Shown piece after piece: positions 3,609 through 22,877 of a stretch of DNA of 40,059 nucleotides. A model generated the notes under the pieces. That model saw only the letters and a list, made by a program, of their open reading frames with translations, did no database searches and had not been told where the DNA came from. The stretch's first letter is position 1. Each line of letters starts with the position of its first letter. The stretch covers positions 1 through 40,059 of the forward strand of contig CAIXLG010000125.1 in assembly GCA_903920215.1 (NCBI GenBank), in the 5' to 3' direction. A program made the position numbers and the translations under genes. Source of the stretch: an uncultured Chlorobiaceae bacterium. Its GTDB lineage: Bacteria; Bacteroidota; Chlorobiia; Chlorobiales; Chlorobiaceae.

Positions 3609-5393
3609 ATGCATAACCTCTACAGGCTCAGTTCTTTTTTTAAACCTTATAGGGTAAAAGGGGTTGGTTCGCTTTTTTTGCAGACGGCTGTTGTGATAAT
3701 GGATCTGAGTATTCCACGTCTGATCCAGCATATCATTGACCAGGGTATTCATCAGCATAACCAGCAGGTGGTTATTCACACCGGTTTACTTATGCTGGGC
3801 ATTACGGTAGTAAGTGTTCTTTTTGCGGTATGGGCACACCTTTTATCTGTCAATGTCTGCGAGAGTATTGCTCGTGATCTTCGTGAAGCGCTGTTTTTGA
3901 AAATCCAGTCATTTTCTTTCGGCAATATTGATCGCCTCAAAACTGGGCAGCTCATGGTACGTCTTTCAAGCGATACTGCCGCAGTTCAGCGTGTCGTATT
4001 GGTTTCATTGCGAATAGGTTCCCGTTCCTTTATTTTGATGGCCGGCAGTTTTATCCTGATGTTTAAAACCAGTAGTTCGCTGGCATTGACTATTCTTCCC
4101 CTGCTTCTTCTCACCTCTATACTGATTGCATTTTTTGTTGTAAAAATGGAGCCTTTGTGGCGTTCAGTGCAGCAACAGCTCGACCGGCTCAACACTGTTC
4201 TTCAGGAAAATATTGCAGGTATTCGCCTCATAAAAGTTTTTGTGAGAGCGAATTTTGAATTCAACCGTTTTAATAGTGCGAATCAGGATTTTACGAGCGA
4301 TTCTATCAGAGTCATGAAGTTTATGGCCAGTATTCCTCCGGTTCTGACACTATGTATCAATGCAGGGATGGTTTTGGTTATATGGGTAGGTGGGCTTGAT
4401 GTTATTCATGGCCAGATGACGACCGGTCAAGTCGTGGCATTCACAAATTACCTGCTCACAACCATGGCTCCGTTGATCTTTATGGCCAATTTTGCGAATA
4501 TTCTCGCTGGAGGAATCGCATCATCGAAGCGTGTTGTCGAAGTGCTCGATGTTATTCCTGACATTCATGATCAAGTTGGCTCAAAGGGGATATCTGAAAA
4601 TATTCAGGGGAAGATTGTTTTTGAAAATGTCACCTTTGGGTACAAGAACCTAAGCGATACTCATATCCTTGAAAATATAAGTTTTACTGCTGAGCCGGGT
4701 AAAATCTTTGCTGTTCTCGGGGCCACTGGGTCGGGTAAATCGACACTCGTGAACCTTATTCCAAGGTTTTATGATGTTTCATCAGGGAGAATCCTGATTG
4801 ATGGCATTGATATCAGGGAGGTAACCCAGGACTCCCTTCTTCAGAAAATTTCCATAGTACCTCAGGAAACCATTTTGTTCTCAGGCACCATTCGTGATAA
4901 CATTCGATACGGTCTCCCCAGCGCTGCTGACGACAAGGTAATCCAGGCGGCACAGGCAGCTCAGGCCCACGATTTTATTCTCAATCTTCCTCTCGGATAT
5001 GATACTCGGGTTGAAGAACGCGGTGTCAACCTTTCCGGAGGCCAGAAACAGCGCATTGCAATTGCAAGAGCCCTGCTTGCAGCTCCGGCAATTATAATTC
5101 TTGATGATAGCACCAGTGCTGTTGATATCGATACGGAAACCAGAATACAGGAAGCTCTGCATAAGAGCAGTAAAAAAAGCACACTCTTCGTCGTTGCTCA
5201 GCGGGTCAGCTCTGTACTGAAAGCCGATAACATCATTGTCCTTGAAAAAGGGCGAATCGCAGGGCAAGGCAATCACTCCTCACTTATACAAACCTGCACT
5301 GTCTATCAGGAAATATATGCTTCTCAGTTGGGCACGGAACCTTTCCGTCAAAGGGTTAACGGTAAACTGCAAACCGCAGGGGAGGTACAATGA
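3609..5393 (+). CDS. ABC exporter half-transporter, subunit with degenerate ATP site (MdlA/LmrC-like)
   Basis: A 594-residue half-transporter with an N-terminal type IV exporter membrane domain (about residues 1-310, six helices) and a C-terminal nucleotide-binding domain. Visible motifs are Walker A GATGSGKST (371-379) and signature LSGGQKQR (about 475). Walker B ends LDD (D499, D500), so the usual catalytic glutamate is aspartate. The H-loop reads VVAQRVSS, with Gln531 in place of histidine. These substitutions mark the non-hydrolysing chain of heterodimeric exporters such as TM287/288, LmrCD and BmrCD. The partner is the next gene, which overlaps by 4 bp. Likely substrates are lipids or hydrophobic compounds, by family only. 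Confidence 0.88.
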   Translation: MHNLYRLSSFFKPYRVKGVGSLFLQTAVVIMDLSIPRLIQHIIDQGIHQHNQQVVIHTGLLMLGITVVSVLFAVWAHLLSVNVCESIARDLREALFLKIQSFSFGNIDRLKTGQLMVRLSSDTAAVQRVVLVSLRIGSRSFILMAGSFILMFKTSSSLALTILPLLLLTSILIAFFVVKMEPLWRSVQQQLDRLNTVLQENIAGIRLIKVFVRANFEFNRFNSANQDFTSDSIRVMKFMASIPPVLTLCINAGMVLVIWVGGLDVIHGQMTTGQVVAFTNYLLTTMAPLIFMANFANILAGGIASSKRVVEVLDVIPDIHDQVGSKGISENIQGKIVFENVTFGYKNLSDTHILENISFTAEPGKIFAVLGATGSGKSTLVNLIPRFYDVSSGRILIDGIDIREVTQDSLLQKISIVPQETILFSGTIRDNIRYGLPSAADDKVIQAAQAAQAHDFILNLPLGYDTRVEERGVNLSGGQKQRIAIARALLAAPAIIILDDSTSAVDIDTETRIQEALHKSSKKSTLFVVAQRVSSVLKADNIIVLEKGRIAGQGNHSSLIQTCTVYQEIYASQLGTEPFRQRVNGKLQTAGEVQ

Positions 5394-7213
5394 GCCGTCA
5401 GCATGAAACCTTAAGAGATCGCCCAAAATCCTTGGGGTTTGGGAATCCCTCTCAACCAGGCAGGATCGAAAAACCGCAGAACTCTTCACAGGCCGTTAAT
5501 CGATTGCTTGCTTACCTCTCACCCTTTCGCTTTAGGCTTTGGATTGTTTTTTTCCTGGTAGTGATCTATTCATTGCTTGGTCTGGCTGGGCCCTACCTGA
5601 TGGGTGTAGCCATAGATCGTTTCATGGTGAAAAAAAATGTTATCGGGCTTGAAATAATTTCATTTTCTCTCCTCTTGGTCTATGTATGCTATAACCTCTT
5701 CCAGCTTGTTTCAGGTTGGATTATAGCCAAGGTATCGCAAACATCCTTGAAACAATTGAGTGGAGATCTTTTCGGCCATATCCAAACCCTTCCTGTCAGC
5801 TATTTTGACCGAAATCCGGCTGGCGGCCTGATGAGCAGGCTTACCATCGATGTTGATGCTATTAATCAGGCGGTCTCCCAAAACGTCACAACAATGCTTG
5901 CCAGTATTATTTCTCTGGTCGGTATTATTATCGCCATGTTTATGCTTGATGCATGGCTGGCCATAACCTCGTTGTTTGTCATTCCGATTTTGTTCTGGTT
6001 CACTCAGTTTGTTGCCCGATATACCCGAAAAGGGTTCCGGGAACTGCAGAAACAGCTGGGAGAAATGAACAGCGTTATGGAAGAGTCTATCAGTGGATTG
6101 AGAGTCATTAAGGCATTCCGCAGGAATGATGAAGTGATCGATACCTTTCGGATTGAGAACAACAAGGTTTTCAAAGCATCAGTCTATGCGAACAGCTACT
6201 CTATGCTGCTCATGCCTCTGACCAATGTTCTTGGCAACCTTTTCATCATTGTGATAGCGGCCTTTGGCGGATGGCTTGCCCTGAAAGGGCTGGTCACTGT
6301 CGGTGTTATTGCCAGTTTTATTATCTACGGGCAGAACTTTATCCAGCCCCTTCGCCAGCTGGCCACTATGTATAACACCATCCAGTCTGCCTTGGCTGGA
6401 TCGGAAAGAATATTTGAAATTCTTGATATTCCATCAGAAGTTGACGTAACAGGTATAACAGTACCAAAAACTCTGGCCGGAGCAATTCGTTTCGATCATG
6501 TGAGCTTTGGCTATCAGAAAGGTGTTTCTGTAGTGAAAGATATGACGTTCGATGCTGAACCTGGTAAAACCATTGCCTTGGTTGGTCCGACAGGAGCAGG
6601 AAAAACCACGATCATCAATCTTCTGACCCGCTTTTATGAAATAAGCAGCGGGGTCATCACTATAGCAGGAAAGGACATCCGTGATTACAGCAAAGCTGAT
6701 TTGCGCCGGAAGATTGGGCTGGTGTTGCAGGATACGTTTTTATTTTCCGGAACAGTTCTTGAAAATATCCGTTTTGGACGACTTGATGCGACTGATTCAG
6801 AATGTCACCAAGCTGCAAAACTTGCCGAAGCAGATGAGTTTATCCGCCAGCTTCCTGAAGGGTATAATACCATCCTCTTGGAACGGGCAGGCAATCTGAG
6901 CCAGGGGCAGCGTCAGTTGCTTGCAATAACAAGAGTTATACTTGCAAACCCTGAGATATTGATTCTTGACGAAGCAACCAGCAGTGTCGATACCAGAACT
7001 GAGCTTCGTATACAGAAAGCTTTATTGACACTGATGAAGGGACGGACAAGCTTTGTTATCGCCCATCGGCTCAGTACCATTCGCGATGCCGACCAGGTTC
7101 TTGTTATTGACCGGGGGACTATCGTTGAAAAGGGAACTCATCGGGAACTTCTTGATCATGAGGGGATGTATTATGATCTCTACATCAGCCAGTTCAAAGG
7201 GTTGGCAATTTAG
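5390..7213 (+). CDS. ABC exporter half-transporter, catalytically competent subunit (MdlB/LmrD-like)
   Basis: A 607-residue partner of the preceding gene, starting at an ATG inside its stop (ATGA) with a good Shine-Dalgarno (GGGGAGGT) just upstream. It has a cytosolic N-terminal extension of about 45 residues, six predicted helices, then an ATPase domain with Walker A GPTGAGKTT (399-407), Walker B LILDEATSSVD with catalytic Glu528, and H-loop His559 in IAHRLST. Its signature reads LSQGQ (503-507) rather than LSGGQ. In a heterodimer this non-canonical signature faces the partner's degenerate Walker B, so both defects fall in one ATP site and the other stays complete. That pattern confirms the two genes as one asymmetric exporter. 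Confidence 0.88.
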   Translation: MSRQHETLRDRPKSLGFGNPSQPGRIEKPQNSSQAVNRLLAYLSPFRFRLWIVFFLVVIYSLLGLAGPYLMGVAIDRFMVKKNVIGLEIISFSLLLVYVCYNLFQLVSGWIIAKVSQTSLKQLSGDLFGHIQTLPVSYFDRNPAGGLMSRLTIDVDAINQAVSQNVTTMLASIISLVGIIIAMFMLDAWLAITSLFVIPILFWFTQFVARYTRKGFRELQKQLGEMNSVMEESISGLRVIKAFRRNDEVIDTFRIENNKVFKASVYANSYSMLLMPLTNVLGNLFIIVIAAFGGWLALKGLVTVGVIASFIIYGQNFIQPLRQLATMYNTIQSALAGSERIFEILDIPSEVDVTGITVPKTLAGAIRFDHVSFGYQKGVSVVKDMTFDAEPGKTIALVGPTGAGKTTIINLLTRFYEISSGVITIAGKDIRDYSKADLRRKIGLVLQDTFLFSGTVLENIRFGRLDATDSECHQAAKLAEADEFIRQLPEGYNTILLERAGNLSQGQRQLLAITRVILANPEILILDEATSSVDTRTELRIQKALLTLMKGRTSFVIAHRLSTIRDADQVLVIDRGTIVEKGTHRELLDHEGMYYDLYISQFKGLAI

Positions 7214-7587
7214 GCTTCTGCCCCATTCTATTTCATCAACCAACGATTAAACTCTTCAATGTGTGATCAGTCAGTCTATCTGTTCAGATCAGGCTATGAC
7301 TAACTTATAGTATTGATTCTTTGTAGGTTGGGGTGATTCCTGAACCCCAACAAAACTAAAGTTGTTCTGAGAGGATAGCTTTTTTCAGCCTGCAGGTAAA
7401 GTTTGCTTTCCATCTCTTGTCTCAGCAACAAATAGAGGTGCCCATTATATTTATGATGAAAGGGAAAAATAAAGTAATGGTAACTATATTAAGGCATTAT
7501 CGATAGCGCCCGATTTCTGAAGAGACTCACCAGCCGATGAAGGTGCTTGGCATAGAAGAGCTTTTAATATTTATCTTCCGATCTCGT
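7214..7587. other. Intergenic region between exporter and restriction enzyme
   Basis: This stretch holds no convincing gene. Its one visible structure is a short perfect inverted repeat (separate entry). An in-frame ATG at 7537 would extend the following gene by 17 residues (MKVLGIEELLIFIFRSR) but lacks a Shine-Dalgarno and has no family resemblance. I therefore treat 7537-7587 as upstream sequence, though this is not certain. Confidence 0.5.
7327..7351. repeat. Inverted repeat (hairpin) downstream of the exporter operon
   Basis: GTTGGGGT (7327-7334) is the exact reverse complement of ACCCCAAC (7344-7351), with a 9-base loop. It lies 113 bp after the exporter stop. There is no T-run on the plus strand, so it is not a classical Rho-independent terminator. 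It could stabilise the exporter mRNA end or be an operator. Confidence 0.45.
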
Positions 7588-10500
7588 ATGTCTTTTCAGA
7601 CCATCCTGACCAAATACAGAAAGTATTCATTCTCTGAACGCGACAAAGGTGACCGCTTTGAACGCTTGATGCAGGCCTACCTGAAAACCGATCCCAAGTA
7701 TGCATACTTATTCAAAAAGGTGTGGCTATGGAGTGAATTCCCCGGACGTGGTGATTTAGGTGGTGGGGATACCGGGATAGATTTGGTAGCCCTGACATTG
7801 GATGGCGACTATTGGGCAATTCAGTGTAAATGTTTTCAGGAAAGTGCAATCATTGACAAACCATCTGTTGACTCATTCCTTTCAACTTCAAGCAGGGAGT
7901 TCAAAGATGAAAACCTTCGAACAACAAGTTTCTCACAGCGTCTATGGATTTCAACGACCAATAAATGGGGACCGAATGCAACCGAAGCCATAAATAATCA
8001 AAACCCGCCGGTTACTCGCCTGAACCTCTACGGACTACAGGAATCATCGGTAGACTGGGAAAAATTAGACCAGGGCATTTACGGAGAAGCATCACGAACT
8101 TCAAAAAAATCACTGAGGCCTCATCAGAACGAAGCTTTGGAAAAAGCTCACGAATATTTCAAAACAGCAGACAGAGGCAAGCTCATCATGGCTTGCGGAA
8201 CAGGAAAAACATTCAACTCCCTGCGAATAGCAGAAAATGAAACCAATGGCAAAGGCTTTATCCTCTTTCTGGTTCCCTCCATTGCATTGCTTGGCCAGAC
8301 ACTGCGGGAATGGTCGTCTGACGCCAACGAACCGATAAATGCTATTTGCATTTGTTCCGACAGTGAAGTTTCTCGCAAAAAAAGCAAGAATGAAGATAGC
8401 GACTCATTCAGCATAGTGGATTTGGCGTTACCTGCATCCACTGATGTCAATTCAATTCTTCGCCAGTTCAAGCATATACAGGCCAATGGACATTCTGGCT
8501 TAACGGTTGTGTTCTCTACCTATCAGTCTATTGCAGTGATTGCTCGTGCACAAGCTGAACTGCAGAAATCAAACGATAGCTACAGCGAGTTTGATCTGAT
8601 CATTTGTGATGAAGCTCATCGAACCACAGGCGTGACCTTGTCCGGTGAAGATGAATCTGCATTCACAAAAGTGCACGACAACAATTTCCTCAAAGGAAAA
8701 AAGCGGCTCTATATGACCGCAACGCCAAGGCTTTACAGTGATGATACAAAAAGCAAGGCAGCTCAAGCTGATGCCATTCTTTGCTCAATGGACGATGTCA
8801 GGTTATTTGGTGAAGAAATTTACCGTATTGGTTTTGGTGAGGCAGTAGAACGGGATCTGCTCAGCGATTACAAAGTGCTCATTCTGACGTTGAATGAAAA
8901 CGATGTTCCTCCGGCTGTACAGAAAATGATAACCGACAACGAAAGTGAAATCAATACCGATGATGCTTCCAAACTTATTGGTTGCATCAATGCACTTTCA
9001 AAACAAATACTCGGTGATGCAGGAATTATCAAAGCCAGTGATCCGGAACCGATGAAACGGGCTGTCGCCTTTTGCCAAAGCATTGCCGTGTCAAAAAAAA
9101 TAACCGCCACTTACAATACCGCATCCGAAGCCTACCTTGATTCATTACCTGAAAAAAGCCAGGAGCAGATGGTTTGGCTCTCTTCGAGGCATATTGACGG
9201 CACCATGACGGCTCCCCAGCGGGATGAATTGCTCTCGTGGCTGAAGGCTGATACCGATTACAATGAGTGCCGCGTTCTCACCAATGTGAGGTGTTTAAGC
9301 GAAGGTGTCGATGTTCCCTCGTTGGATGCTGTTATGTTTCTCTCTGCCCGGAACTCACAGGTCGATGTGGTTCAGTCGGTTGGCCGTGTCATGCGAAAAG
9401 CGCTAGGTAAAAAATACGGATACATCATCATCCCTGTTGTTGTTCCTTCCGATGTTGAGGCCGACAAAGCTCTTGACGATAATGAACGTTACAAAGTTGT
9501 CTGGACAGTATTGAATGCTCTCCGAGCTCATGATGACCGATTTAATGCTACCGTTAATAAAATCGAACTCAACCGAAAACGCCCTGAACAGATTTTAGTA
9601 GGCAGACCAGCCTACTCATGGGAAGATGGTCAGCAAATTTTTGCAGACCCTGATGAGGCTTACGGGACTGATAAGGACATCAATCAACAGCTTGCCATGC
9701 AATTTGAACAATTGCAGCATGTTGTCTTTGCCCGTATGGTGCAAAAGGTTGGTGATCGACGTTATTGGGAACAATGGGCTAACAATGTTGCGGAAATTGC
9801 TCAACGACAAGTCGAAAGAATCAACCGCCTCATCAATGCCGAAGGGGAGCACAAGAAGGCATTTCAGGAGTTCCTTTACGGCCTGCAGCAGAACATCAAC
9901 CCATCAATCACCCAGATGGAGGCGGTTGAAATGTTGTCGCAGCACATCATCACTAAGCCGGTTTTTGAGGCTCTCTTTAAGGGGTACTCCTTCGTCCAGA
10001 ACAATCCCATCTCTGTCTCCATGCAGAAAATGCTCGACTTGCTTGAGGCCCAGACCATCCAGGAGGATGCAGACACCCTGAACAAATTTTATGAATCCGT
10101 AAGAATGCGAGCGGCAGATATCGACAATGCTGCAGGCAAACAACGCATTATTATTGAGCTGTACGACAAGTTCTTTAAAACGGCTTTCCCCAAGATGGTG
10201 GAAAAGCTCGGTATTGTCTATACACCGGTTGAATTGGTTGATTTCATCATTCACTCCGTCAACGATGTACTCAAGCAAGAATTTGACCGTTCCCTTTCTG
10301 ACGAGAACATCCACATTCTTGATCCCTTTACCGGCACAGGCACCTTTATTACCCGCCTCCTGCAAAGTGGCTTGATTGACCAGAAAGACCTCGAACGCAA
10401 ATACCAGAAAGAGATACATGCCAACGAAATTGTACTGCTCGCCTATTACATTGCTGCGGTCAATATCGAGAACGCCTACCATGATATGATGGGTGACACA

Positions 10501-12468
10501 ATAAACTACAAAGCTTTTGAAGGCATTTGCCTGACCGACACCTTTCAGCTTGGGGAAACTGATGAAAGCGCCGTTCTCTTCTCAGATATGTTTCCGCAAA
10601 ACTCCGAACGTGTATCAGCACAAAAGAAAACGTCACTGCGAGTCATCATTGGCAACCCGCCCTATTCCGTCGGCCAGAAGTCGGCCAATGACAATGCGCA
10701 AAACCAGAGTTATAAGGTACTTGATGGGCGGATTGCTGCAACCTACGCCGCTGCAACTGATGCCACCAACAAAAACTCACTCTACGATTCCTATATCAAG
10801 GCTTTTCGATGGTCAACCGATCGGCTTGATCCGGAGAATGGCGGGGTCATTGCATTTGTTTCAAATGGCGCATGGATTGATGGTAACAGCACTGATGGAT
10901 TGAGGCAGTGCCTTGAAAAGGAGTTTTCCAGCATCTATGTCTTCAACCTGAGAGGCAACCAGCGCACCAGTGGAGAGTTAAGCAGAAAAGAAGGTGGTAA
11001 AATATTCGGTTCCGGTTCCCGTACACCCATTGCGATTACTCTGCTGGTGAAAAACCCCGACAAGACCGAGGAGAAAGCCACAATCCATTATGTCGACATC
11101 GGCGACTACCACAACCGTGAAGAGAAGCTCACCATTATCAGCAACTACCGTTCGGTTAGCAACCCAATAATGTCTTGGGAAACGTTGGAACCCAATGAGC
11201 ACGGGGATTGGCTGAATCAGAGGAATGATTTGTTTGAGACGTTTATTCCTATAAACTCGCACAAGAAATATGATTTAAAAACAAAGTCTTTCTTTGTACT
11301 CAATTCAAGAGGGAATGAAACAGGAAGAGATGCGTGGGTATATAATTCTTCCAAACAGGAACTGACGTCAAATATCCAGCGAACTGTTGCATTTTTCAAT
11401 AATCATGTAGCTGACTATATCAAAGCAAAAGAAAATCATCCCCTTCTTAAAGCCGATGATTTTATTGATACTGACGCAAAAAAAATCAGTTGGACAAGCA
11501 GCCTGATTTCTCATTTAGAACGTTGTAATGCTGCGGATTTCCAGCAAGATAAGATTCTGTTGAGCACCTATCGGCCATTTTTCAAGCAAAATTTGTATTT
11601 CTGTGATAAAATGGTCCACAGACGTGGGCAGATGCAAGAATTTTTTCCAACTCCAGATACTAAGAATCTTGTTATCTGTGTTTCTGGTTTAGGAGGAAGT
11701 AAAGAAAATACCACAATTATAACCGACTGCATTCCTGATTTAAATTGTTTGGATTCAGGAACCCAATGCTTCCCACTCTTCTACTACGAAGAGAGCCAGA
11801 AATCAAGTCCGACACTCTTTGATGCAGGTAGTGAGAATGAGTTTATCCGCAGAGATGGCGTTTCAGACTTTATTCTCGAAAGAGCACAGAAGATATACGG
11901 CAATCGCGTAGCAAAAGAAGATATTTTCTACTACGTCTACGGCATACTCCACAGCCCTGAATACCGCACCCGTTTTGCCAATGACCTGAAAAAGATGCTC
12001 CCACGCATCCCGCTTGTCGATGAACCCCGTGAATTCTGGTTATTCAGCAAGGCCGGTAGGGAGCTGGCAGAACTGCACATCAACTTCGAAACAGTGCCAC
12101 CTTATGATGGTGTAACCGTCACAGGTACCGAAAAAGGGCTTTTCAATGTCGATAAAATGCGCTTTCCGAAGAAAGGGCAAAAGGATACTGTCCTTTACAA
12201 CAGTTATATAACCATATCGAACATTCCTGATAAGGCCTATGAATATATTGTGAACGGTAAAAGTGCCATAGAATGGATCATGGAACGCTATCAGATCACG
12301 ACCCACAAAGAGAGTGGTATAATCAATGACCCTAACGATTGGGCTAAAGAGGTTGGTAATCTTCGCTATATACTCGACCTGCTCCTGAGTGTGATCAACG
12401 TGAGTGTGAAGACTGTGGGGATTGTAGAGGGGTTACCGGAGTTGAGGTTTGAAGCTCCAATGGCTTAG
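7588..12468 (+). CDS. Type ISP restriction-modification enzyme (LlaGI/LlaBIII-like): nuclease, helicase and N6-adenine methyltransferase in one chain
   Basis: A 1626-residue polypeptide taken from the ATG at 7588 (MSFQTILTKYRKYSFSERD), the usual beginning of this family. Domain order: Mrr-like PD-(D/E)XK nuclease with Asp65 and Gln79-Cys-Lys81; superfamily 2 helicase with Walker A ACGTGKT (202-208), DEAH box at 341-344, YMTATPRLY and motif VI QSVGRVMRKA from 596; a helical coupler; a gamma-class adenine methyltransferase with SAM motif DPFTGTG (912-918) and catalytic NPPY (1023-1026); and a C-terminal target-recognition region. Length and order match LlaGI-type enzymes, which translocate and cut unmodified phage DNA. 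All catalytic motifs look intact. The next gene, a Roco-TIR protein, may form a defence island with it. Confidence 0.92.
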   Translation: MSFQTILTKYRKYSFSERDKGDRFERLMQAYLKTDPKYAYLFKKVWLWSEFPGRGDLGGGDTGIDLVALTLDGDYWAIQCKCFQESAIIDKPSVDSFLSTSSREFKDENLRTTSFSQRLWISTTNKWGPNATEAINNQNPPVTRLNLYGLQESSVDWEKLDQGIYGEASRTSKKSLRPHQNEALEKAHEYFKTADRGKLIMACGTGKTFNSLRIAENETNGKGFILFLVPSIALLGQTLREWSSDANEPINAICICSDSEVSRKKSKNEDSDSFSIVDLALPASTDVNSILRQFKHIQANGHSGLTVVFSTYQSIAVIARAQAELQKSNDSYSEFDLIICDEAHRTTGVTLSGEDESAFTKVHDNNFLKGKKRLYMTATPRLYSDDTKSKAAQADAILCSMDDVRLFGEEIYRIGFGEAVERDLLSDYKVLILTLNENDVPPAVQKMITDNESEINTDDASKLIGCINALSKQILGDAGIIKASDPEPMKRAVAFCQSIAVSKKITATYNTASEAYLDSLPEKSQEQMVWLSSRHIDGTMTAPQRDELLSWLKADTDYNECRVLTNVRCLSEGVDVPSLDAVMFLSARNSQVDVVQSVGRVMRKALGKKYGYIIIPVVVPSDVEADKALDDNERYKVVWTVLNALRAHDDRFNATVNKIELNRKRPEQILVGRPAYSWEDGQQIFADPDEAYGTDKDINQQLAMQFEQLQHVVFARMVQKVGDRRYWEQWANNVAEIAQRQVERINRLINAEGEHKKAFQEFLYGLQQNINPSITQMEAVEMLSQHIITKPVFEALFKGYSFVQNNPISVSMQKMLDLLEAQTIQEDADTLNKFYESVRMRAADIDNAAGKQRIIIELYDKFFKTAFPKMVEKLGIVYTPVELVDFIIHSVNDVLKQEFDRSLSDENIHILDPFTGTGTFITRLLQSGLIDQKDLERKYQKEIHANEIVLLAYYIAAVNIENAYHDMMGDTINYKAFEGICLTDTFQLGETDESAVLFSDMFPQNSERVSAQKKTSLRVIIGNPPYSVGQKSANDNAQNQSYKVLDGRIAATYAAATDATNKNSLYDSYIKAFRWSTDRLDPENGGVIAFVSNGAWIDGNSTDGLRQCLEKEFSSIYVFNLRGNQRTSGELSRKEGGKIFGSGSRTPIAITLLVKNPDKTEEKATIHYVDIGDYHNREEKLTIISNYRSVSNPIMSWETLEPNEHGDWLNQRNDLFETFIPINSHKKYDLKTKSFFVLNSRGNETGRDAWVYNSSKQELTSNIQRTVAFFNNHVADYIKAKENHPLLKADDFIDTDAKKISWTSSLISHLERCNAADFQQDKILLSTYRPFFKQNLYFCDKMVHRRGQMQEFFPTPDTKNLVICVSGLGGSKENTTIITDCIPDLNCLDSGTQCFPLFYYEESQKSSPTLFDAGSENEFIRRDGVSDFILERAQKIYGNRVAKEDIFYYVYGILHSPEYRTRFANDLKKMLPRIPLVDEPREFWLFSKAGRELAELHINFETVPPYDGVTVTGTEKGLFNVDKMRFPKKGQKDTVLYNSYITISNIPDKAYEYIVNGKSAIEWIMERYQITTHKESGIINDPNDWAKEVGNLRYILDLLLSVINVSVKTVGIVEGLPELRFEAPMA

Positions 12469-12550
12469 CGAAGGGTTTCCGCAAAAAGATGTGAATAGGT
12501 ACTCATACTGAAAGAGTATTCAAAAACTCTCAACGTTACCTTGAAAGACA

Positions 12551-15313
12551 ATGAAGAACACCATTGAAGCTAAACGCCGAATAAAACAAGTTTTGAATGA
12601 TAAATCAACAGTTCTGGATTTATCAGGACTTGAATTAGAATCCTTACCGGATTCTATTGGTCAGTTATCTCACTTGCAGACTCTCAATCTTTTGAATACC
12701 CCATTACAGCAATTGCCAGAATCAGTTGGCAAGTTATCAAGCTTACAAACACTTGAGCTTTCCCATACACAACTGCAAGAATTGCCGGATTCTATTGGCC
12801 AGTTATCTCACTTGCAGACTCTCAACCTTTTGAATACCCCATTACAGCAATTGCCGGAATCAGTTGGCAAATTATCAAGCTTACAAACACTTGAGCTTTC
12901 CCATACACAACTGCAAGAATTGCCGGATTCTATTGGCCAGTTATCTCACCTGCAGACTTTCAACCTTTTGAATACCCCATTAAAGCAATTACCGGAATCA
13001 GTTGGCAAATTATCAAGCTTACAAACACTTGAGCTTTCCCATACACAACTACAAGAATTGCCGGATTCTATTGGCCAATTATCTCACCTGCAGACTTTCA
13101 ACCTTTTGAATACCCCATTACAGCAATTACCAGACTCTATTGGGCAGTTAGCTCAGTTGCAGAAGCTTGAGCTTTCCCATACACAATTAAAGCAATTACC
13201 TGCATCTTTGCTGAAACTAAAAAATCTTAATGAACTCAATTTGTATGGTAATAATACACTTAATCTTCCTCAGGAAATATTACATGGAAGGAGGAACATA
13301 ATCATTAACCAAAGCGGTCAAGAGCAATATATTTCTCAAGCAGCGAGTCCTGCCACAATCCTTGACTACTATTTCCGTATCCTGAATGATCAACGGCCTC
13401 TCAACGAAGCCAAGCTTATTCTTGTTGGTCGGGGTGGTGTTGGCAAAACCTCACTGGTAAAAAAGTTGCTCTTCGATAAGTTTGATGAATATGAAAAAAA
13501 GACGGAAGGAATTGCCATTTCCGAGTGGCAGCTCCAGTTGCATGAGTCGGAGATTATTCGCCTGAACCTCTGGGATTTCGGCGGTCAGGAAATCATGCAT
13601 GCCACACATCAGTTTTTTCTCACACAGCGCAGTCTCTACCTGCTGGTACTCGAAGGTCGACAGGGTGGCGAGGATGCCGATGCAGAGTACTGGCTGAAAC
13701 TTATCGAAAGTTTTGGAACCGAGGATGATGGAAATATCGCTCCGGTTCTCATCGTTCTGAACAAAGGTTCATTGAACCCGTTTGACCTGAATCGCCTGGC
13801 ACTCCTCCGGAAATATCGGTTTATCAAGGATTTTCTTGTGACCGATTGCAATACAGGTCAAGGAATACAGGAGTTACGGGCATCCATTGAACAAGAGATC
13901 GACCGTCTCCCTTATCTTCGGGCAGCATTTCCAGCAAGCTGGTTTGCCATCAAGGACCAACTTGCGGCAATGCAGGATAATTTCATCTCCTTTGCAGAGT
14001 ACAGGGTACTCTGCAAAGAGGCGGGAGAAAAGGAGTTTCAAGGCCAGGATTTTCTTGCAACGCATATGCACAACCTTGGGGTAGCTCTGAATTACAAGGA
14101 TGATCCCCGATTGCGTGACCACCATGTGCTCAATCCCAGGTGGGTAACGAGCGGTGTGTACGCCCTGCTTAATGATCCGATTCTTCTTCAGCGAAATGGC
14201 GAGTTACGGCTTGATGATATTGGTCGCATTCTTGATCCTGAGAAATACCCCCGGCACATGCACCGGTTTCTTATGGACTTGATGAGAAAATTTGAACTCT
14301 GCTTCACGTTTACTGATGATGATACCCATTACCTGATTACGGAGCTGCTTGACAAGCAGGAACCAAAAGAAGCCGAAGATTTTGAACTTCCTGAATGCCT
14401 GAATTTTGAATACCGCTACGCAGTGTTACCGGAAGGTCTCTTGCCCCGATTTATTGTTCGAACACACTCATTGAGTGAAGGCAATCCTCGATGGCGAACA
14501 GGCGTAATCCTTTCGTTTGAAGGGAACCGAGCTCTGGTACGGGCAGACGCAGGGGAGAAACGAGTCTCTATTGCTGTTGATGGCCCTTTAGAAAGCCGTC
14601 GGCGACTTCTGGCCGTTATCCGCTCAGATTTCGCACGAATTCATGCATCCATCAGCAAACTCTGTCCGGAAGAAGTGGTGCCATTACCAGGCATTCCTGA
14701 GGTTTCAGTTTCTTATGCTGAATTGCTCACCTTTGAGCAGAACGGTATCAAGACTTTCCAAAAAGCATATAACGGAAAAATATTAACGCTTGATGTCCAA
14801 CAGCTTTTGAATGGAGTTGATTTGGCAGGAACAAGACAAAAGAACGAGCCTTCATATGATAAGCCGAGAGTGAAAATATTCTACTCCTATGCCCATGAGG
14901 ATGAATATTATCGGAACAAACTGGAGACACATCTAAAAATTCTGGAACGGGCAGGGTTAATCGATCAATGGTATGACCGATATATTGATCCCGGTGATGA
15001 CTGGAAAAATGCTATTGATGAAAACCTTGAACGCGCTGACATTATCCTGCTTCTTGTAAGCGCTGATTTTATAGACTCAGACTATTGCTGGGAAATAGAA
15101 ATGAAACGAGCTTTAGAACGCCATGAGTCTGGTGTAGCAACAGTCATTCCCATCATCGTCCGTGACGTTAACTGGCAATCGGCTCCTTTTGCAACATTTC
15201 AGGCATTACCAAAGGATGCTAAGGCAATAAAGCTTTGGTCTGACGAAGATACTGCATGGAAGAACGTCAGTGAAGGAATTGAAGAAGTCGTCAATAAACG
15301 CATGAAGAAATAG
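12551..15313 (+). CDS. LRR-Roc-COR protein with C-terminal TIR domain (bacterial Roco protein)
   Basis: A 920-residue multidomain protein. Residues about 20-240 are 23-residue leucine-rich repeats (LPDSIGQLSHLQTLNLLNTP type). A Roc GTPase follows: P-loop GRGGVGKTS (293-301), switch II DFGGQE (342-347), and an NK box at 404-405 that reads NKGS rather than NKxD. A COR dimerisation domain spans about 450-740. Residues 770-915 form a TIR domain (VKIFYSYAHEDE start) with the SADFIDSDYC segment followed by Glu848/Glu850, one of which should be the NADase-type catalytic glutamate. Bacterial Roco proteins are models for LRRK2, and TIR domains in bacteria often degrade NAD in anti-phage responses. Its place 83 bp after a Type ISP enzyme supports a defence role, which is inferred. 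Confidence 0.88.
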   Translation: MKNTIEAKRRIKQVLNDKSTVLDLSGLELESLPDSIGQLSHLQTLNLLNTPLQQLPESVGKLSSLQTLELSHTQLQELPDSIGQLSHLQTLNLLNTPLQQLPESVGKLSSLQTLELSHTQLQELPDSIGQLSHLQTFNLLNTPLKQLPESVGKLSSLQTLELSHTQLQELPDSIGQLSHLQTFNLLNTPLQQLPDSIGQLAQLQKLELSHTQLKQLPASLLKLKNLNELNLYGNNTLNLPQEILHGRRNIIINQSGQEQYISQAASPATILDYYFRILNDQRPLNEAKLILVGRGGVGKTSLVKKLLFDKFDEYEKKTEGIAISEWQLQLHESEIIRLNLWDFGGQEIMHATHQFFLTQRSLYLLVLEGRQGGEDADAEYWLKLIESFGTEDDGNIAPVLIVLNKGSLNPFDLNRLALLRKYRFIKDFLVTDCNTGQGIQELRASIEQEIDRLPYLRAAFPASWFAIKDQLAAMQDNFISFAEYRVLCKEAGEKEFQGQDFLATHMHNLGVALNYKDDPRLRDHHVLNPRWVTSGVYALLNDPILLQRNGELRLDDIGRILDPEKYPRHMHRFLMDLMRKFELCFTFTDDDTHYLITELLDKQEPKEAEDFELPECLNFEYRYAVLPEGLLPRFIVRTHSLSEGNPRWRTGVILSFEGNRALVRADAGEKRVSIAVDGPLESRRRLLAVIRSDFARIHASISKLCPEEVVPLPGIPEVSVSYAELLTFEQNGIKTFQKAYNGKILTLDVQQLLNGVDLAGTRQKNEPSYDKPRVKIFYSYAHEDEYYRNKLETHLKILERAGLIDQWYDRYIDPGDDWKNAIDENLERADIILLLVSADFIDSDYCWEIEMKRALERHESGVATVIPIIVRDVNWQSAPFATFQALPKDAKAIKLWSDEDTAWKNVSEGIEEVVNKRMKK
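12651..13133 (+). repeat. Tandem 138-bp DNA repeats encoding paired leucine-rich repeats
   Basis: The sequence ATTCTATTGG recurs at 12651, 12789, 12927 and 13065, exactly 138 bp apart each time, with near-identical sequence between. A diverged half unit begins at 13134. Each unit encodes 46 residues, i.e. two 23-residue LRRs: one of the form LPDSIGQLSHLQ and one of the form LPESVGKLSSLQ. The low divergence at nucleotide level indicates recent expansion. The exact multiple of 23 codons keeps the reading frame whatever the copy number. Confidence 0.93.
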
Positions 15314-15382
15314 GACTCTTTGGGATACCGAGAAACGCGGTGGTTCTTCTTCATCTTAATTATGCATTAAAACCTTGAATTC

Positions 15383-15796
15383 ATGTGGTGGACCTACGCG
15401 TTATTATCTGCTCTGTTTGCTGCCTTTACTGCCATACTTGCTAAAATTGGCATAAAAGGGGTTAACTCCGATTTGGCAACTGCGATACGAACGGTATTTA
15501 TTTTATGTATTGCATGGGGGATTGTCTTTGCCCGCAAAGAGGTAGATGGCATCCATCTCCTTTCAAAAAACAACTGGGTGTTTCTCGGTCTCTCGGGTGT
15601 TGCAACCGGTTTGTCTTGGATTTTCTATTTTAAAGCATTGCAGTTGGGCAAGGTTTCACAGGTTGCCCCTGTCGATAAAATGAGCGTTGCCATTGCAATC
15701 ATTTTATCAGCTTTGCTCCTGCATGAGGTTCTGACATGGAAAATCCTTATGGGAGCACTTCTTATCATTGGGGGTTCTGTCCTGATTATCTTGTAG
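15383..15796 (+). CDS. Small EamA-domain membrane protein (half-size DMT transporter)
   Basis: A 137-residue, almost wholly hydrophobic protein with one EamA repeat of about five membrane helices (WWTYALLSALFAAFTAILAK start, GVATGLSWIFYFKALQLG in the middle, and a closing LIIGGSVLIIL helix). It is half the length of ordinary DMT transporters, which have two EamA repeats. Proteins of this size and sequence are common as single-domain members and probably work as dimers. It ends 87 bp before a full-length DMT transporter on the same strand, which might be a functional neighbour. No Shine-Dalgarno stands out before the ATG. Substrate unknown. Confidence 0.8.
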   Translation: MWWTYALLSALFAAFTAILAKIGIKGVNSDLATAIRTVFILCIAWGIVFARKEVDGIHLLSKNNWVFLGLSGVATGLSWIFYFKALQLGKVSQVAPVDKMSVAIAIILSALLLHEVLTWKILMGALLIIGGSVLIIL

Positions 15797-16958: not shown

Positions 16959-16960
16959 AT

Positions 16961-17977
16961 TCAAGGAGTAGTGACCTGATCGAAAACTCCGCCATCACTG
17001 AAGTGTGTTTTCTGTGCACTGCGCCAGTTCCCGAACACTTCCTTCAGCGTAAAGAGTTTGATGGAAGGAAAGTTTGCTGCATATTTTTTTAGCGCGATAG
17101 CATTTCTTGGGCGATAAGAGTTTTTCGCGATAATATCCTGTGCTTCCGGAGTGTAGAGGAAGTTTAGATAGGCTTCAGCTACCTTGCGGGTACCATGTTT
17201 CTCGACGTTTTTATCCACGATAGCTACAGGCGGTTCAGCCAGAATGCTGACAGGGGGAAGAACGATTTCATACTGATCCGATCCGAACTCTTTAAGAATC
17301 AGGTGGGCCTCATTTTCCCATGCCAGAAGAACATCACCAATACCCCGCTGTGTAAAGGTAAGGGTTGAACCCCGGGCTCCCGTATCAAGTACCGGGACAT
17401 TTTTATATAAAGCCTTGACAAATTTTTTAGCCTGATCTGTTGAGTTTGTCTGTTTTTGTTTGTAACCCCATGCCGCCAAGTAGACCCAGCGGGCACCTCC
17501 TCCGGTTTTCGGGTTTGGTGTGATTACCGATACACTCGGTTTTATAACGTCATCCCAGCTCTTGATCTGTTTCGGATTCCCCTTGCGTACGACGAAAACG
17601 ATTGTAGATGTATATGGAGTGCTGTTATTTGGCAATCTTTTCTGCCAGTTAGGATCGAGAAGTTTGCTGTCGGCAATGGCATCAATGTCATTGGCAAGAG
17701 CAAGAGTTACCACATCGGCTTCAAGTCCGTCAATAATAGCTCGTGCCTGTTTACCAGATCCGCCGTGTGACTGGTTGATTGTCACAGTCTGGCCCGTTTT
17801 CTGTAACCAGTGCTTTGCAAAAGCAGCATTTTCACTCTGATAGAGTTCCCTCGTAGGGTCATACGATACATTCAGCAGCGTAACATTTCCTGCGGCCTCT
17901 GCCAGAGTGCCTGGAAGTACGGCGGCGAGAAAAAGTGCTCCCGCAACTATACCCTTTTTTATCCAGCCATGCTTCAT
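16961..17977 (-). CDS. sbp: Sulfate ABC transporter substrate-binding protein (Sbp/CysP family)
   Basis: A 338-residue periplasmic protein. The ATG at 17977 is preferred over the GTG two codons upstream because GGGAGG then lies at normal spacing. A Sec signal peptide ([23 protein letters not shown]) is followed by the Sbp hallmarks [28 protein letters not shown] and [16 protein letters not shown], and the late [20 protein letters not shown] block that lines the sulfate site. Length is normal. No cysT/cysW/cysA partner is in the window, so this is an orphan binding protein. Two tandem operator-like sequences lie 66-101 bp upstream of the start, a likely regulatory control. Thiosulfate or molybdate-like oxyanions remain possible ligands. 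Confidence 0.9.
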
Positions 17978-19143: not shown

Positions 19144-21351
19144 TTATCGTCTCTGGATGTGGTTGATGACCTCAGCCAGCCGGTCGATCTCATCCTTGGT
19201 ATTGTAGAAAGCCAGCGACGGCCGTATTGTCCCTTCAACGCCGAATCTCCGTAACGATGGCTGTGAGCAGTGGTGGCCGGTCCGGACAGCAATGCCCTCG
19301 CGGTCAAGCAGTTTACCCACCTCTTCATTGGGGAGATTGTTGAGCACAAACGAAACTACTCCCACCTTGTTGCGGGCAGTCCCGATGATACGCAGACCAG
19401 GAATCCTGATAAGTTTCTCCGTTGCGTACTCCGTCAGCTCATGCTCGTACCGGGCGATGTTGTCAAGCCCGATTTTACGCACATAGTCAAGCGCAGCTCC
19501 AAGCCCGATAGCATCACCGATCGATGGCGTTCCAGCTTCAAACTTTGCCGGTGCTTCGTTGTAGATAGTCTCCTCAAAGCGCACATCCTGAATCATGTTC
19601 CCGCCGCCCTGCCATGGAGGCATAATCTCAAGCAGTTCCCGCTTGCCGTAGACCACGCCGATACCGGTAGGAGCAAAAATCTTGTGTCCTGAAAAGACAA
19701 AGAAATCAGCATTGAGATCCTGCACATTGACCGGTATATGGGCAACCGACTGTGCTCCGTCAATCAGAACCTTTGCGTCAAACCGCTTTGCCAGCTGTAT
19801 CATCTCCCTGACGGGCAGAATGGTTCCAAGGCCGTTGGATGCCTGAGTGAGTGAAACAAACTTTGTGCGAGGTCCGAGCAGTTTTGTGTACTCTTCCATG
19901 ATAATCTCGCCACGGTCATTGACCGGCACAACCTTGATGCGAGCGCCTTTTTCCTGCGCAACCATCTGCCATGGCACAATATTGGCATGGTGCTCAAGGA
20001 TGGAGAGCACAATCTCATCACCCGGTTGGATAAACTTCCGTCCCCAGGTCTGAGCAACAAGGTTGACGCCTTCAGTAGTGCCTCTCACATAGATGATTTC
20101 CGATGCTGAACTAGCTCCGATGAACTGTCTTATTTTCTCACGTGCACCTTCATAGGCATCGGTGGCACGGGCAGCAAGGGTGTGTGCACCGCGATGGATG
20201 TTCGAGTTATCGTTGGCGTAAAACTGCGCAACAGCATTGATAACACTGAGGGGCTTCTGGGTTGTTGCCGCATTGTCGAACCAGACAAGCTGTTTGCCGT
20301 GAATCTTCTGGTGAAGAACAGGAAAATCCTTGCGAATCGTAAGCACATCAAAGCCTTCAGGCTGGTGAATCAGGGCTTTTGGCTCCCGCAGAAAGTAATA
20401 GGGCTCTTTGGGAACTTCAGGCAGACTGAAAGGAAGCGAACTGCTGCCGAGAGTCTCCAGACTCCCGTTCGGCCATACCGGAGCCGGCCCTTTTCCCGGA
20501 AATTCAGGCGCTCCCGAATTTCCCCATTGCCTACTGCCAACTGGCCACTGCCCACCCCGCAGCGTCTGAAACACGGCCTCAAGATTCGGGCTGCCCTGTT
20601 CCTGTTCAAAGGTTCTGTAGAGCTTTTCAGCATAGCACTCTCCTTCAGCAGGTCCGCTGGTTGAGCCCGGTACCTGTGAAAGCTGTTCCTGCAGCTGATT
20701 GGTGGAAAAAGCTTCAGGGGTATGCGACTGTGGGTTTATTTCAGGATGGGTACCTGTTACGTCCGTCGGATCTTGAGCTGCAGCAAGAAGCACTCTAAAG
20801 GAAAAATCGTCTTCAGAAGGAAGACCACCATTCAGTGTAGTGAAAAACGGAGTAATGCTTTCCGGATCAGCTTTTGAAAAACCTTCAGCACTCTCCGGTG
20901 TTGGAGGCATGCTGCGGCGGATGAACTGGTCGAGTCCGTAGGAGCCGTCCGTGTTTTCTGAATAGTTCTGCTGTTCGGTCAATTTGTTGGCATGATGTCC
21001 CAGCGGTTCCTGCTTTTTTTCAGGTGTTCCGGGCAGAAAATAGAAATCGTGTTCTGGTTCAGCAGGAAGCGCATCGAAACCATAAGGAGAAGCTGATTCC
21101 CCATAAAAATCCTGCTGCTGCAGAGCGGTCGGAATGTTCAAAGCTCCCGGTTCACCGGCAAGAACAGTTTTATCCTGTAAGCTGCCAGCAGCCGAAGAAG
21201 GTGCCCCTGCGGCATCGGTTTCATATCTCGGAACACTACCCGCTTCGGGCACTTCATTGAACAGGCGGCTTGCTATCTGTGCAATGAGCACCGGGTTCAG
21301 CGCTTCACTTTCTATTCCAGAAATGTTCTCTTGTTCATATTCTCTTGGCAT
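19144..21351 (-). CDS. Family 2A encapsulin cargo: SufS-like cysteine desulfurase with long disordered N-terminal domain
   Basis: A 735-residue protein in two parts. Residues about 1-335 are low-complexity, rich in Pro, Glu, Gly and Ser, with islands such as LIAQIASRLFNEVP (22-35), HDFYFLPG (101-108) and EPYYFLRE (316-323). Residues 336-735 are a group II (SufS/CsdA) desulfurase: DNAATTQKP, PLP lysine Lys557 in FSGHK, and catalytic Cys695 in RTGHHCSQP. Such desulfurases take sulfur from cysteine as a persulfide and release alanine. In characterised family 2A systems the disordered N-terminal domain loads the enzyme into the shell. It is the last gene of the minus-strand locus, 68 bp after the shell gene with a hairpin between, and ends at a good terminator. 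Confidence 0.93.
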   Translation of the reverse strand: MPREYEQENISGIESEALNPVLIAQIASRLFNEVPEAGSVPRYETDAAGAPSSAAGSLQDKTVLAGEPGALNIPTALQQQDFYGESASPYGFDALPAEPEHDFYFLPGTPEKKQEPLGHHANKLTEQQNYSENTDGSYGLDQFIRRSMPPTPESAEGFSKADPESITPFFTTLNGGLPSEDDFSFRVLLAAAQDPTDVTGTHPEINPQSHTPEAFSTNQLQEQLSQVPGSTSGPAEGECYAEKLYRTFEQEQGSPNLEAVFQTLRGGQWPVGSRQWGNSGAPEFPGKGPAPVWPNGSLETLGSSSLPFSLPEVPKEPYYFLREPKALIHQPEGFDVLTIRKDFPVLHQKIHGKQLVWFDNAATTQKPLSVINAVAQFYANDNSNIHRGAHTLAARATDAYEGAREKIRQFIGASSASEIIYVRGTTEGVNLVAQTWGRKFIQPGDEIVLSILEHHANIVPWQMVAQEKGARIKVVPVNDRGEIIMEEYTKLLGPRTKFVSLTQASNGLGTILPVREMIQLAKRFDAKVLIDGAQSVAHIPVNVQDLNADFFVFSGHKIFAPTGIGVVYGKRELLEIMPPWQGGGNMIQDVRFEETIYNEAPAKFEAGTPSIGDAIGLGAALDYVRKIGLDNIARYEHELTEYATEKLIRIPGLRIIGTARNKVGVVSFVLNNLPNEEVGKLLDREGIAVRTGHHCSQPSLRRFGVEGTIRPSLAFYNTKDEIDRLAEVINHIQRR

Positions 21352-21419: not shown

Positions 21420-22877
21420 TTATTTCGTTTTGGATCCAGACTGCCGATGTTCATAATCGTGATAGTAACCCACCTCTACATTCTCAAGGATAGCCAAAGC
21501 ATCATCGGTCAGAACGGCAAGTGATGAATAGAGTGTCAGGAGATATGAAGCCACACCAAGCTTGTCGAGTCCCATCAGCCTTGCAGAGAGGCTCGGGCTG
21601 ATTTCACCCGGAATTCCGGCCTGATGCAGTCCAACCACACCCTGCTCATTTTCACCGACACGAACGAGAATAATGCTGGTTGTTCCGTGGCTGGACTTGT
21701 TGTTCTTCTTGATTTCAATTTTGTCACTCGGAATAAGTGGTACACCGCGCCACGTCAGTACAGGAGTTCCAAAGAGATTGATGGTGGCCGGAGGCACGCC
21801 GCGCCATGTGCATTCACGCTCAAAAGCGGCAATGGCTTTCGGGTGGGCGATAAAGAAGGCTGGCTTTTTCCACACTTTGGTGAGCAGATCGTCAAGGTCA
21901 TCAGGGGTTGGTGTACCGTAGCGGGTGCTGATACGCTGGCCGGGATCTGCAGAGTGAAGCAGACCGAACTCCCTGTTATTGATGAACTCCCACTCCTGAC
22001 GCTCTTTGATGCCCTCGATCGTCAGGCGCATCTGCTGCTCTATCTGGTTGTAAGGTTCATTGTAGAGGTCAGAAACGCGGGTATGGACACGAACAACAGT
22101 TTGAATAGCCTGAAGCGAGTACTCGCGCGGCTTGTTCGAGTAATCGACATAGGTTTCCGGTATCTCTACATTTTCAGCGAATCCTGCGACAAGATCAATG
22201 TGCTTTTCGCCGTGAGTGTTGACGGTGGAACGTATTTTCAGATACTCTTCGACTGCTTTTTCAAATGACACTTTCAATACAGGCGATTCCTTGAACAGCT
22301 TTTCAATATCGATGCTTGAGAGGGAGAAAAATGAACCAGGGGTAATGGTGCGGATGGTGACCGATGAAGGTTTTTCGGAAACCAGATCTTCCTCACCAAA
22401 ATACTCGCCTTCAGAAAGCAGGGCAATACGGAGATCTTCTCCATGGAGTCCCTTGCTTAAAATCTCAACCTGACCGTGTGCGATGATGAAAATCTTGTGA
22501 CGATCTTCGCCTTCAAGGATCAGGGTGTTGCCGAGTTCAGCCTCTTCAAGCACAAACTTTTTGGCTATGCTGGCAATAATATCATCCTCAAAAGATGCGA
22601 AAAGCGGGATGCTTTTAAGGGATTCAGGCTTGAATGAAGGGGTGCCCTTGTGAAAATTAATGTCAATTCTTTCGGGTTTCTGCAGTTCAATTTTTGTGCG
22701 GTTGACTCGGTAGGTGCCCGATGAAACATGAACCCAGGGAAGAAGCTTCAACAACCACCTCGGGGTTATCGACATCATCTGTGGTGGGGTCTTGGTAGTA
22801 TTCGCCAGATTTCTTGCAACATGGGTCGTTACACTGCGCTGTAACAGACTGCTGGGTTCCTGTTGTGAGTTTGACAT
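21420..22877 (-). CDS. srpI: Family 2A encapsulin shell protein (SrpI-type, with cyclic-nucleotide-binding-like domain)
   Basis: A 485-residue shell-forming protein. An N-terminal arm (1-85) is followed by a cNMP-binding-like beta-barrel (about 88-205: SIPLFASFEDDI, LEGEDRHKIFIIAHGQVEI, YFGEEDLVSEKP) and then the HK97-type capsid core (206-485), with EWEFINNREFGLLH and GAxA-like core segments. This arrangement is the family 2A signature; the domain is displayed on the shell. The phosphate-binding cassette has Ser171 where cAMP-binding proteins have Arg, so a canonical cyclic nucleotide may not bind. In cyanobacteria the homologous SrpI is induced by sulfur starvation and encloses the desulfurase. 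Downstream cargo and upstream cysK give a complete sulfur locus. Confidence 0.95.
   Translation of the reverse strand: MSNSQQEPSSLLQRSVTTHVARNLANTTKTPPQMMSITPRWLLKLLPWVHVSSGTYRVNRTKIELQKPERIDINFHKGTPSFKPESLKSIPLFASFEDDIIASIAKKFVLEEAELGNTLILEGEDRHKIFIIAHGQVEILSKGLHGEDLRIALLSEGEYFGEEDLVSEKPSSVTIRTITPGSFFSLSSIDIEKLFKESPVLKVSFEKAVEEYLKIRSTVNTHGEKHIDLVAGFAENVEIPETYVDYSNKPREYSLQAIQTVVRVHTRVSDLYNEPYNQIEQQMRLTIEGIKERQEWEFINNREFGLLHSADPGQRISTRYGTPTPDDLDDLLTKVWKKPAFFIAHPKAIAAFERECTWRGVPPATINLFGTPVLTWRGVPLIPSDKIEIKKNNKSSHGTTSIILVRVGENEQGVVGLHQAGIPGEISPSLSARLMGLDKLGVASYLLTLYSSLAVLTDDALAILENVEVGYYHDYEHRQSGSKTK

What the first reader, a model, noticed from the sequence alone, without database searches (positions are those of the whole stretch)
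7588..15313. Type ISP restriction enzyme next to an LRR-Roc-COR-TIR protein: candidate defence pair
Two large genes, 83 bp apart on one strand, both with intact catalytic motifs. Type ISP enzymes are anti-phage; TIR effectors typically deplete NAD after sensing. A Roco GTPase could be the sensor/switch that triggers the TIR domain if restriction fails. The Roco-restriction link is not something I know as established.
Basis: partly seen in the sequence, partly recalled or inferred. Interest (0 to 1): 0.62.

Follow-up and report, generated by a model that had tools for sequence, protein, structure and literature searches.

The report
Immune-receptor gene docked behind restriction enzyme
In a green sulfur bacterium, a gene for a likely phage-triggered suicide receptor (a bacterial cousin of the Parkinson's protein LRRK2, with an NAD-destroying tail) sits directly behind a DNA-cutting restriction enzyme, and related bacteria repeatedly put this receptor or other suicide genes in the same position behind quite different restriction enzymes.

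Summary
A complete Type ISP restriction-modification (RM) enzyme (7588-12468) is followed, 82 nt later on the same strand, by a complete LRR-Roc-COR-TIR protein (12551-15313) with intact P-loop and catalytic glutamate (E850, not E848).

The proposed exclusive ISP/Roco pair is not supported. In the same genome and in close relatives, 86-89% identical ISP genes stand at the same site without the Roco gene. The Roco gene was inserted precisely after the ISP stop codon.

The broader restriction link is real but confined to one bacterial family. In Chlorobiaceae, 6 of 10 TIR-Roco genes lie directly 3' of RM or RM-linked genes: Type ISP, Type III (twice), Type I (three times). Outside the family it is 0 of 25. 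Copies 82-85% identical sit behind three different RM contexts, plus one with no RM gene. The 3' ends of near-identical RM genes in this genus also carry AbiH, AbiU2, ThsB-like TIR, pentapeptide-TIR, GmrSD or SIR2-HerA genes.

Best reading: an NLR-like abortive-infection receptor used as an exchangeable second line behind restriction. Defence function, NADase activity and coupling to restriction are inferred. RM plus abortive effector is a known arrangement; a Roco-TIR receptor there was not found in the papers searched.

The parts
7588..12468 (+). Type ISP restriction-modification enzyme, 1626 aa (Mrr nuclease, SF2 ATPase, coupler, N6-adenine methyltransferase, target recognition domain)
   Evidence: Pfam; PADLOC (PDLC03597, 2389 bits); LlaBIII 4xqk E=0, LlaGI 5ffj E=0; start from homologues; motifs
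12551..15313 (+). LRR-Roc-COR-TIR protein, 920 aa
   Evidence: AlphaFold model mean pLDDT 87.6, best PDB match CtRoco 6hlu
12611..13336 (+). leucine-rich repeats; DNA tandem array 12647-13186 of 138 bp x 3.9 copies, 93% matches
   Evidence: LRR is 51-60% identical between orthologues against 79-89% for the Roc, COR and TIR domains
13403..13885 (+). Roc GTPase domain (P-loop VGRGGVGKT with K299; WDFGGQE switch II)
   Evidence: Pfam PF08477
13931..14815 (+). COR-A and COR-B domains
   Evidence: PF16095, PF25497; 4wnr E=2.6e-78, 3dpu E=4e-61
14870..15292 (+). TIR domain; catalytic Glu850 codon at 15098-15100
   Evidence: PF13676; PADLOC ThsB1 model PDLC00420, 177 bits; Glu invariance; AbTIR alignment
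12471..15343 (+). DNA present here and absent from ISP-EamA junctions of relatives: the inserted Roco cassette
   Evidence: homology to G000:C62, G033:C72 and G076 runs to 12470 and resumes at 15344
7193..7260 (+). end of the ABC gene and following DNA; a second copy follows the ISP stop codon in ISP-only relatives (68-bp direct repeat around the ISP cassette)
   Evidence: 88% over 68 bp
5390..7213 (+). ABC transporter, upstream chromosomal flank of the insertion site
15383..15796 (+). EamA-family gene (137 aa), downstream flank; directly follows the ABC gene in empty-site relatives G005 and G069

Best explanation
A single-gene NLR-like immune receptor has been inserted as a cassette directly behind an autonomous Type ISP RM enzyme. 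Proposed mechanism: the fast-changing LRR domain senses a phage component or infection state; the Roc-COR GTPase changes nucleotide and dimer state; the C-terminal TIR domains come together and hydrolyse NAD+ through Glu850, stopping the infected cell. Restriction is the first line and the receptor the second. The RM 3' end is used as an exchangeable effector slot, probably for co-transcription and co-transfer, not because this receptor needs the ISP enzyme. Shown: domains, catalytic residues, the insertion, the recurrence behind different RM types within the family, and the presence of other abortive-infection genes in the same slot. Inferred: phage defence, NADase activity, LRR as sensor, co-transcription, order of action.
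For: Domain architecture and motifs. Model matches CtRoco and LRRK1/2. Insertion footprint 12471-15343, with ISP-only and empty sites in relatives. In Chlorobiaceae, 6 of 10 TIR-Roco genes lie 3' of RM or RM-linked genes at gaps of about 5-82 nt. Against that: 0 of 11 non-TIR Roc-COR genes in the family (Fisher p=0.004) and 0 of 25 TIR-Roco outside it (p=1.3e-4); lineage-collapsed 4 of 7 gives p=0.011 and 0.001. Two separate TIR-Roco clades show it. Same-slot occupants: pentapeptide-TIR twice, AbiU2, AbiH, ThsB-like TIR, GmrSD, SIR2-HerA. LRR divergence and tandem expansion. RM with attached abortive effectors is an established arrangement (PMC3710099, PMC12707154).
Against: No function was tested. 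TIR-Roco genes outside the family show no RM adjacency, so the receptor works without RM. Two standalone copies (L180, L181) and two behind metK/ahcY (L076, L191) exist in the family. Several RM copies carry housekeeping genes or nothing in the same slot. Counts are small and species are related. The G012 case is split over two contigs and may be broken.
Confidence: 0.5

Rival explanations
1. Passenger accretion. The Roco-TIR gene is a self-sufficient defence gene that landed in a permissive spot; defence genes cluster by selection on shared transfer, with no functional coupling to restriction.
For: ISP occurs without it. The same Roco clade occurs alone (L180). No RM link outside the family. 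The leader just upstream of Roco is partly shared with standalone L180 (71% over 77 nt), so the cassette may carry its own leader.
Against: Tight, same-strand 3' placement behind ISP, Type III and Type I genes is more specific than loose island clustering. Non-TIR Roco genes in the same family do not show it (0 of 11).
Confidence: 0.3
2. PrrC-like guardian. The Roco protein is held inactive by the RM enzyme and fires when a phage anti-restriction protein disables it.
For: Precedent of PrrC held by EcoPrrI (PMC12707154, PMC3710099). Recurrent RM adjacency in the family.
Against: Receptors 82-85% identical sit with unrelated RM enzymes or with none, which argues against a dedicated protein-protein lock. 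PrrC's ABC ATPase and HEPN nuclease domains are absent.
Confidence: 0.1
3. Signalling TIR. The TIR domain makes a cyclic ADP-ribose messenger for a separate effector, as in Thoeris, instead of depleting NAD+ itself.
For: Best PADLOC model for the TIR domain is ThsB1, 177 bits.
Against: No ThsA-like gene among the annotated neighbours of the window, and neighbours vary between loci.
Confidence: 0.08

Closest known systems
Type ISP RM enzymes LlaGI and LlaBIII
   Same: Whole-length sequence match and the same five-domain layout with intact motifs.
   Different: Nothing in the enzyme itself; its 3' neighbour is the unusual part.
Chlorobaculum tepidum Roco (CtRoco; PDB 6hlu, 8r4b)
   Same: LRR-Roc-COR core; same bacterial family; best PDB fold match.
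   Different: CtRoco has no TIR domain by the profile used and no RM gene detected nearby.
PrrC with EcoPrrI (RM guardian)
   Same: Abortive effector encoded with an RM operon, proposed as second line (PMC12707154, PMC3710099).
   Different: PrrC is an ABC-HEPN anticodon nuclease with a dedicated Type IC partner; this is an LRR-GTPase-TIR protein behind exchangeable RM types.
ThsB of Thoeris and other bacterial TIR NADases (AbTIR, Cat1)
   Same: TIR domain with the aligned catalytic Glu.
   Different: Here TIR is fused to LRR-Roc-COR and no ThsA is present nearby.
Plant TIR-NLRs and bacterial NLR-like (STAND) defence proteins
   Same: LRR, NTP-binding switch and TIR in one protein (analogy, own knowledge).
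   Different: Switch is a Ras-like Roc-COR GTPase, not a STAND ATPase; domain order is LRR first, TIR last.

Membership tests
Type ISP RM enzyme | Single polypeptide with Mrr nuclease, SF2 ATPase, coupler, N6 methyltransferase and Type ISP specificity domain | tested here: met
   Pfam; LlaBIII and LlaGI matches
Type ISP RM enzyme | Intact nuclease QxK, Walker A, DEAH, NPPY motifs | tested here: met
Type ISP RM enzyme | ATP-dependent translocation and cleavage | not testable with these tools
   needs purified enzyme
Roco family | Roc GTPase domain followed by COR | tested here: met
   PF08477, PF16095, PF25497; structures
Roco family | GTP hydrolysis and nucleotide-dependent dimer cycle | not testable with these tools
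   P-loop and switch II intact but no assay
TIR NADase | TIR fold with catalytic glutamate | tested here: met
   PF13676; E850 invariant; aligned to AbTIR
TIR NADase | NAD+ cleavage | not testable with these tools
   needs enzyme assay
Thoeris | Adjacent ThsA effector | tested here: not met
   no such gene among the annotated neighbours between 3609 and 23941
RM guardian (PrrC-like) | Effector gene embedded in or attached to an RM operon | tested here: met
   82 nt behind ISP, same strand; recurrence
RM guardian (PrrC-like) | Activation on RM inhibition | not testable with these tools
   needs experiment

The most novel reading that the evidence does not exclude
Bacterial Roco GTPases fused to TIR are phage-sensing NLR-like receptors, and RM operons in Chlorobiaceae carry a dedicated 3' slot in which such receptors and other abortive effectors are exchanged, with functional coupling between restriction outcome and effector firing.
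Probability: 0.2. Interest if true: 0.8.

Novelty: new variant of a known kind. Interest (0 to 1): 0.55.

Why it matters
A 2019 review states that very little is known about what Roco proteins do in bacteria and archaea and places all known prokaryotic ones in the plain LRR-Roc-COR group (PMC6337361). This locus gives a testable function, phage-triggered cell suicide, for a TIR-bearing branch related to the LRRK2 model protein CtRoco. It also suggests that near-identical RM genes across species serve as a fixed backbone with swapped second-line effectors, a natural collection for finding new abortive systems.

Tried and rejected
Obligate ISP-Roco pair: rejected, since ISP-only copies exist in relatives and in this genome. 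General Roco-RM link across bacteria: rejected by neighbours of 25 TIR-Roco loci outside the family. E848 as catalytic residue: rejected as not conserved. Transposon-borne cassette: no direct or inverted repeats of 14 nt or more found within any of the three junction stretches, each searched on its own; the 68-bp repeat belongs to the ISP cassette, not to Roco. Plasmid search with the window's 5' part gave nothing; phage records gave only LRR matches; viral contigs gave 7 distant Roc-COR loci, not followed beyond gene layout. Paper searches for prokaryotic Roco in phage defence or with RM found none; only open-licence PMC papers were searched.

Full report
Check of the observation. The window holds the two genes described. 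The ISP gene is best read as 7588-12468, 1626 aa. The longest frame opens at 7537, but homologues start at its 18th codon. Pfam gives Mrr_cat_2, ResIII, Helicase_C, ISP_coupler, N6_Mtase and Type_ISP_C. phmmer against the PDB aligns it over its whole length with LlaBIII and over residues 190-1638 with LlaGI, both at E=0. The nuclease, ATPase and methyltransferase motifs are intact. The second gene, 12551-15313, encodes 920 aa with LRR, Roc, COR-A, COR-B and TIR_2. The AlphaFold model has mean pLDDT 87.6; its best PDB match is CtRoco 6hlu, with LRRK1 and LRRK2 among the next. It is invariant in 29 TIR-Roco sequences and aligns with the E of the AbTIR 'YEL' motif. That this AbTIR residue is catalytic is my own knowledge.

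Where it sits. In relatives G005 and G069 the ABC-transporter gene is followed directly by the 137-aa EamA-family gene, an empty site. In G033:C72 and G076, and on another contig of this same genome (G000:C62), an ISP gene 86-89% identical to the window's lies between them, with no Roco gene. In those copies a 68-bp copy of the ABC gene's end follows the ISP stop codon, so the ISP cassette is flanked by a direct repeat. In the window, homology to the ISP-EamA junction stops at 12470, two bases past the ISP stop, and resumes at 15344. The Roco gene with its leader is therefore a separate insertion directly behind ISP.

The same receptor elsewhere in the family. Chlorobiaceae is inferred from G163, whose 1102-aa Roco protein is identical to the solved C. 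tepidum Roco; the window's genus is then probably Chlorobium. Sixty-five species of the genus and 86 of the family were searched. Ten full TIR-Roco genes have readable upstream sequence; the partial G376 copy at a contig edge was not counted. Six lie directly 3' of RM or RM-linked genes: Type ISP (window); Type III Res followed by SIR2 and HerA (L072); Type III methyltransferase (L073); Type I HsdS-HsdM (L074, L075, and L183 in G012, whose COR-TIR part is on another contig, so that gene may be broken). Annotation comes from Pfam and PADLOC for L072, L073 and the L074 HsdM and from phmmer against EcoKI and local seeds for the rest. The other four do not: L180, L181, L076 and L191, the last two behind metK and ahcY. 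The tree puts window, L072, L073 and L180 in one clade (100/100), and L074, L075 and L181 in another far from it. RM adjacency thus arose at least twice, and within the first clade it involves three different RM contexts.

Controls. None of 11 non-TIR Roc-COR genes with upstream sequence in the family has a detected RM neighbour, Fisher p=0.004. None of 25 TIR-Roco loci outside the family does, p=1.3e-4; the nearest RM-like gene there is 8.4 kb away in one locus. Collapsing the second clade's Type I cases to one event gives 4 of 7, p=0.011 and 0.001. These tests treat related loci as independent and use seed-based RM detection, so they are rough.

The slot. What follows near-identical RM genes differs between species. 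Behind ISP: pentapeptide-TIR (L083, L091), HEPN AbiU2 (L084), unidentified 253-aa and 350-aa proteins (L079, L090), or no inserted gene (L080, L081, L087). Behind Type III Res at 88-100% identity: AbiH overlapping by 4 nt (L216), a ThsB-like TIR protein (L184), GmrSD (L219), a SEC-C protein (L225), SIR2-HerA-Roco (L072). Others have an NAD(P)-binding protein, a ferrochelatase-like or tRNA-synthetase-like gene, an unidentified ORF, or nothing close. Behind Type I HsdM at 91-100% identity in twelve full-length cases: Roco in three, other genes or nothing in most, contig edge in one. So a recognisable defence gene occupies the slot in roughly four in ten of the ISP and Type III cases looked at. 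No 5'-side control was made.

Mechanism. The LRR array contains 3.9 copies of a 138-bp unit at 93% match, and LRR identity between orthologues is 51-60% against 79-89% for the Roc, COR and TIR domains. A sensor under diversification would look like this, but a repeat prone to recombination would too. The proposed chain, LRR sensing, Roc-COR switching, TIR NADase and growth arrest, follows from the families involved and was not tested.

Compared with what is known. RM operons with attached abortive effectors are established: PrrC with EcoPrrI, and many HEPN genes including AbiU2 (PMC3710099, PMC12707154). A review says little is known of prokaryotic Roco function (PMC6337361). Searches of the held papers found no report of a Roco-TIR protein in defence or next to RM genes; subscription papers and preprints outside the library were not covered. 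I therefore rate it a new variant of a known kind.

Noticed in passing
window 21420-22877 (-), with 19144-21351 (-) and 22988-23941 (-): Family 2B encapsulin shell gene (NF041163, 588 bits) between a class-V aminotransferase gene and a cysteine synthase gene; looks like an encapsulin-sulfur metabolism locus.
   Followed up: no
window 16960-17000: About 40-bp sequence near the end of the sulfate-binding protein gene that recurs at other places in this and seven related genomes.
   Followed up: no
L082:5713-6090 (-), L090:8421-8876 (+): Short ORFs matching only the ISP C-terminal specificity region lie 3' of full ISP genes, possibly spare specificity segments or remnants.
   Followed up: no
L228 (Nostoc plasmid NZ_CP117771.1): Roc-COR match in a protein named for its SAV_2336 N-terminal domain, beside MoxR ATPase and CHAT genes, as in conflict systems.
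   Followed up: no
L104:4566-7049 (+): TIR-Roco gene of a Verrucomicrobiota genome preceded by a SIR2-nSTAND protein, another likely defence gene.
   Followed up: no
L089 (G067), between the same ABC and EamA137 genes: The same insertion site holds a MacB-type ABC transporter with an outer-membrane efflux protein instead of ISP.
   Followed up: partly
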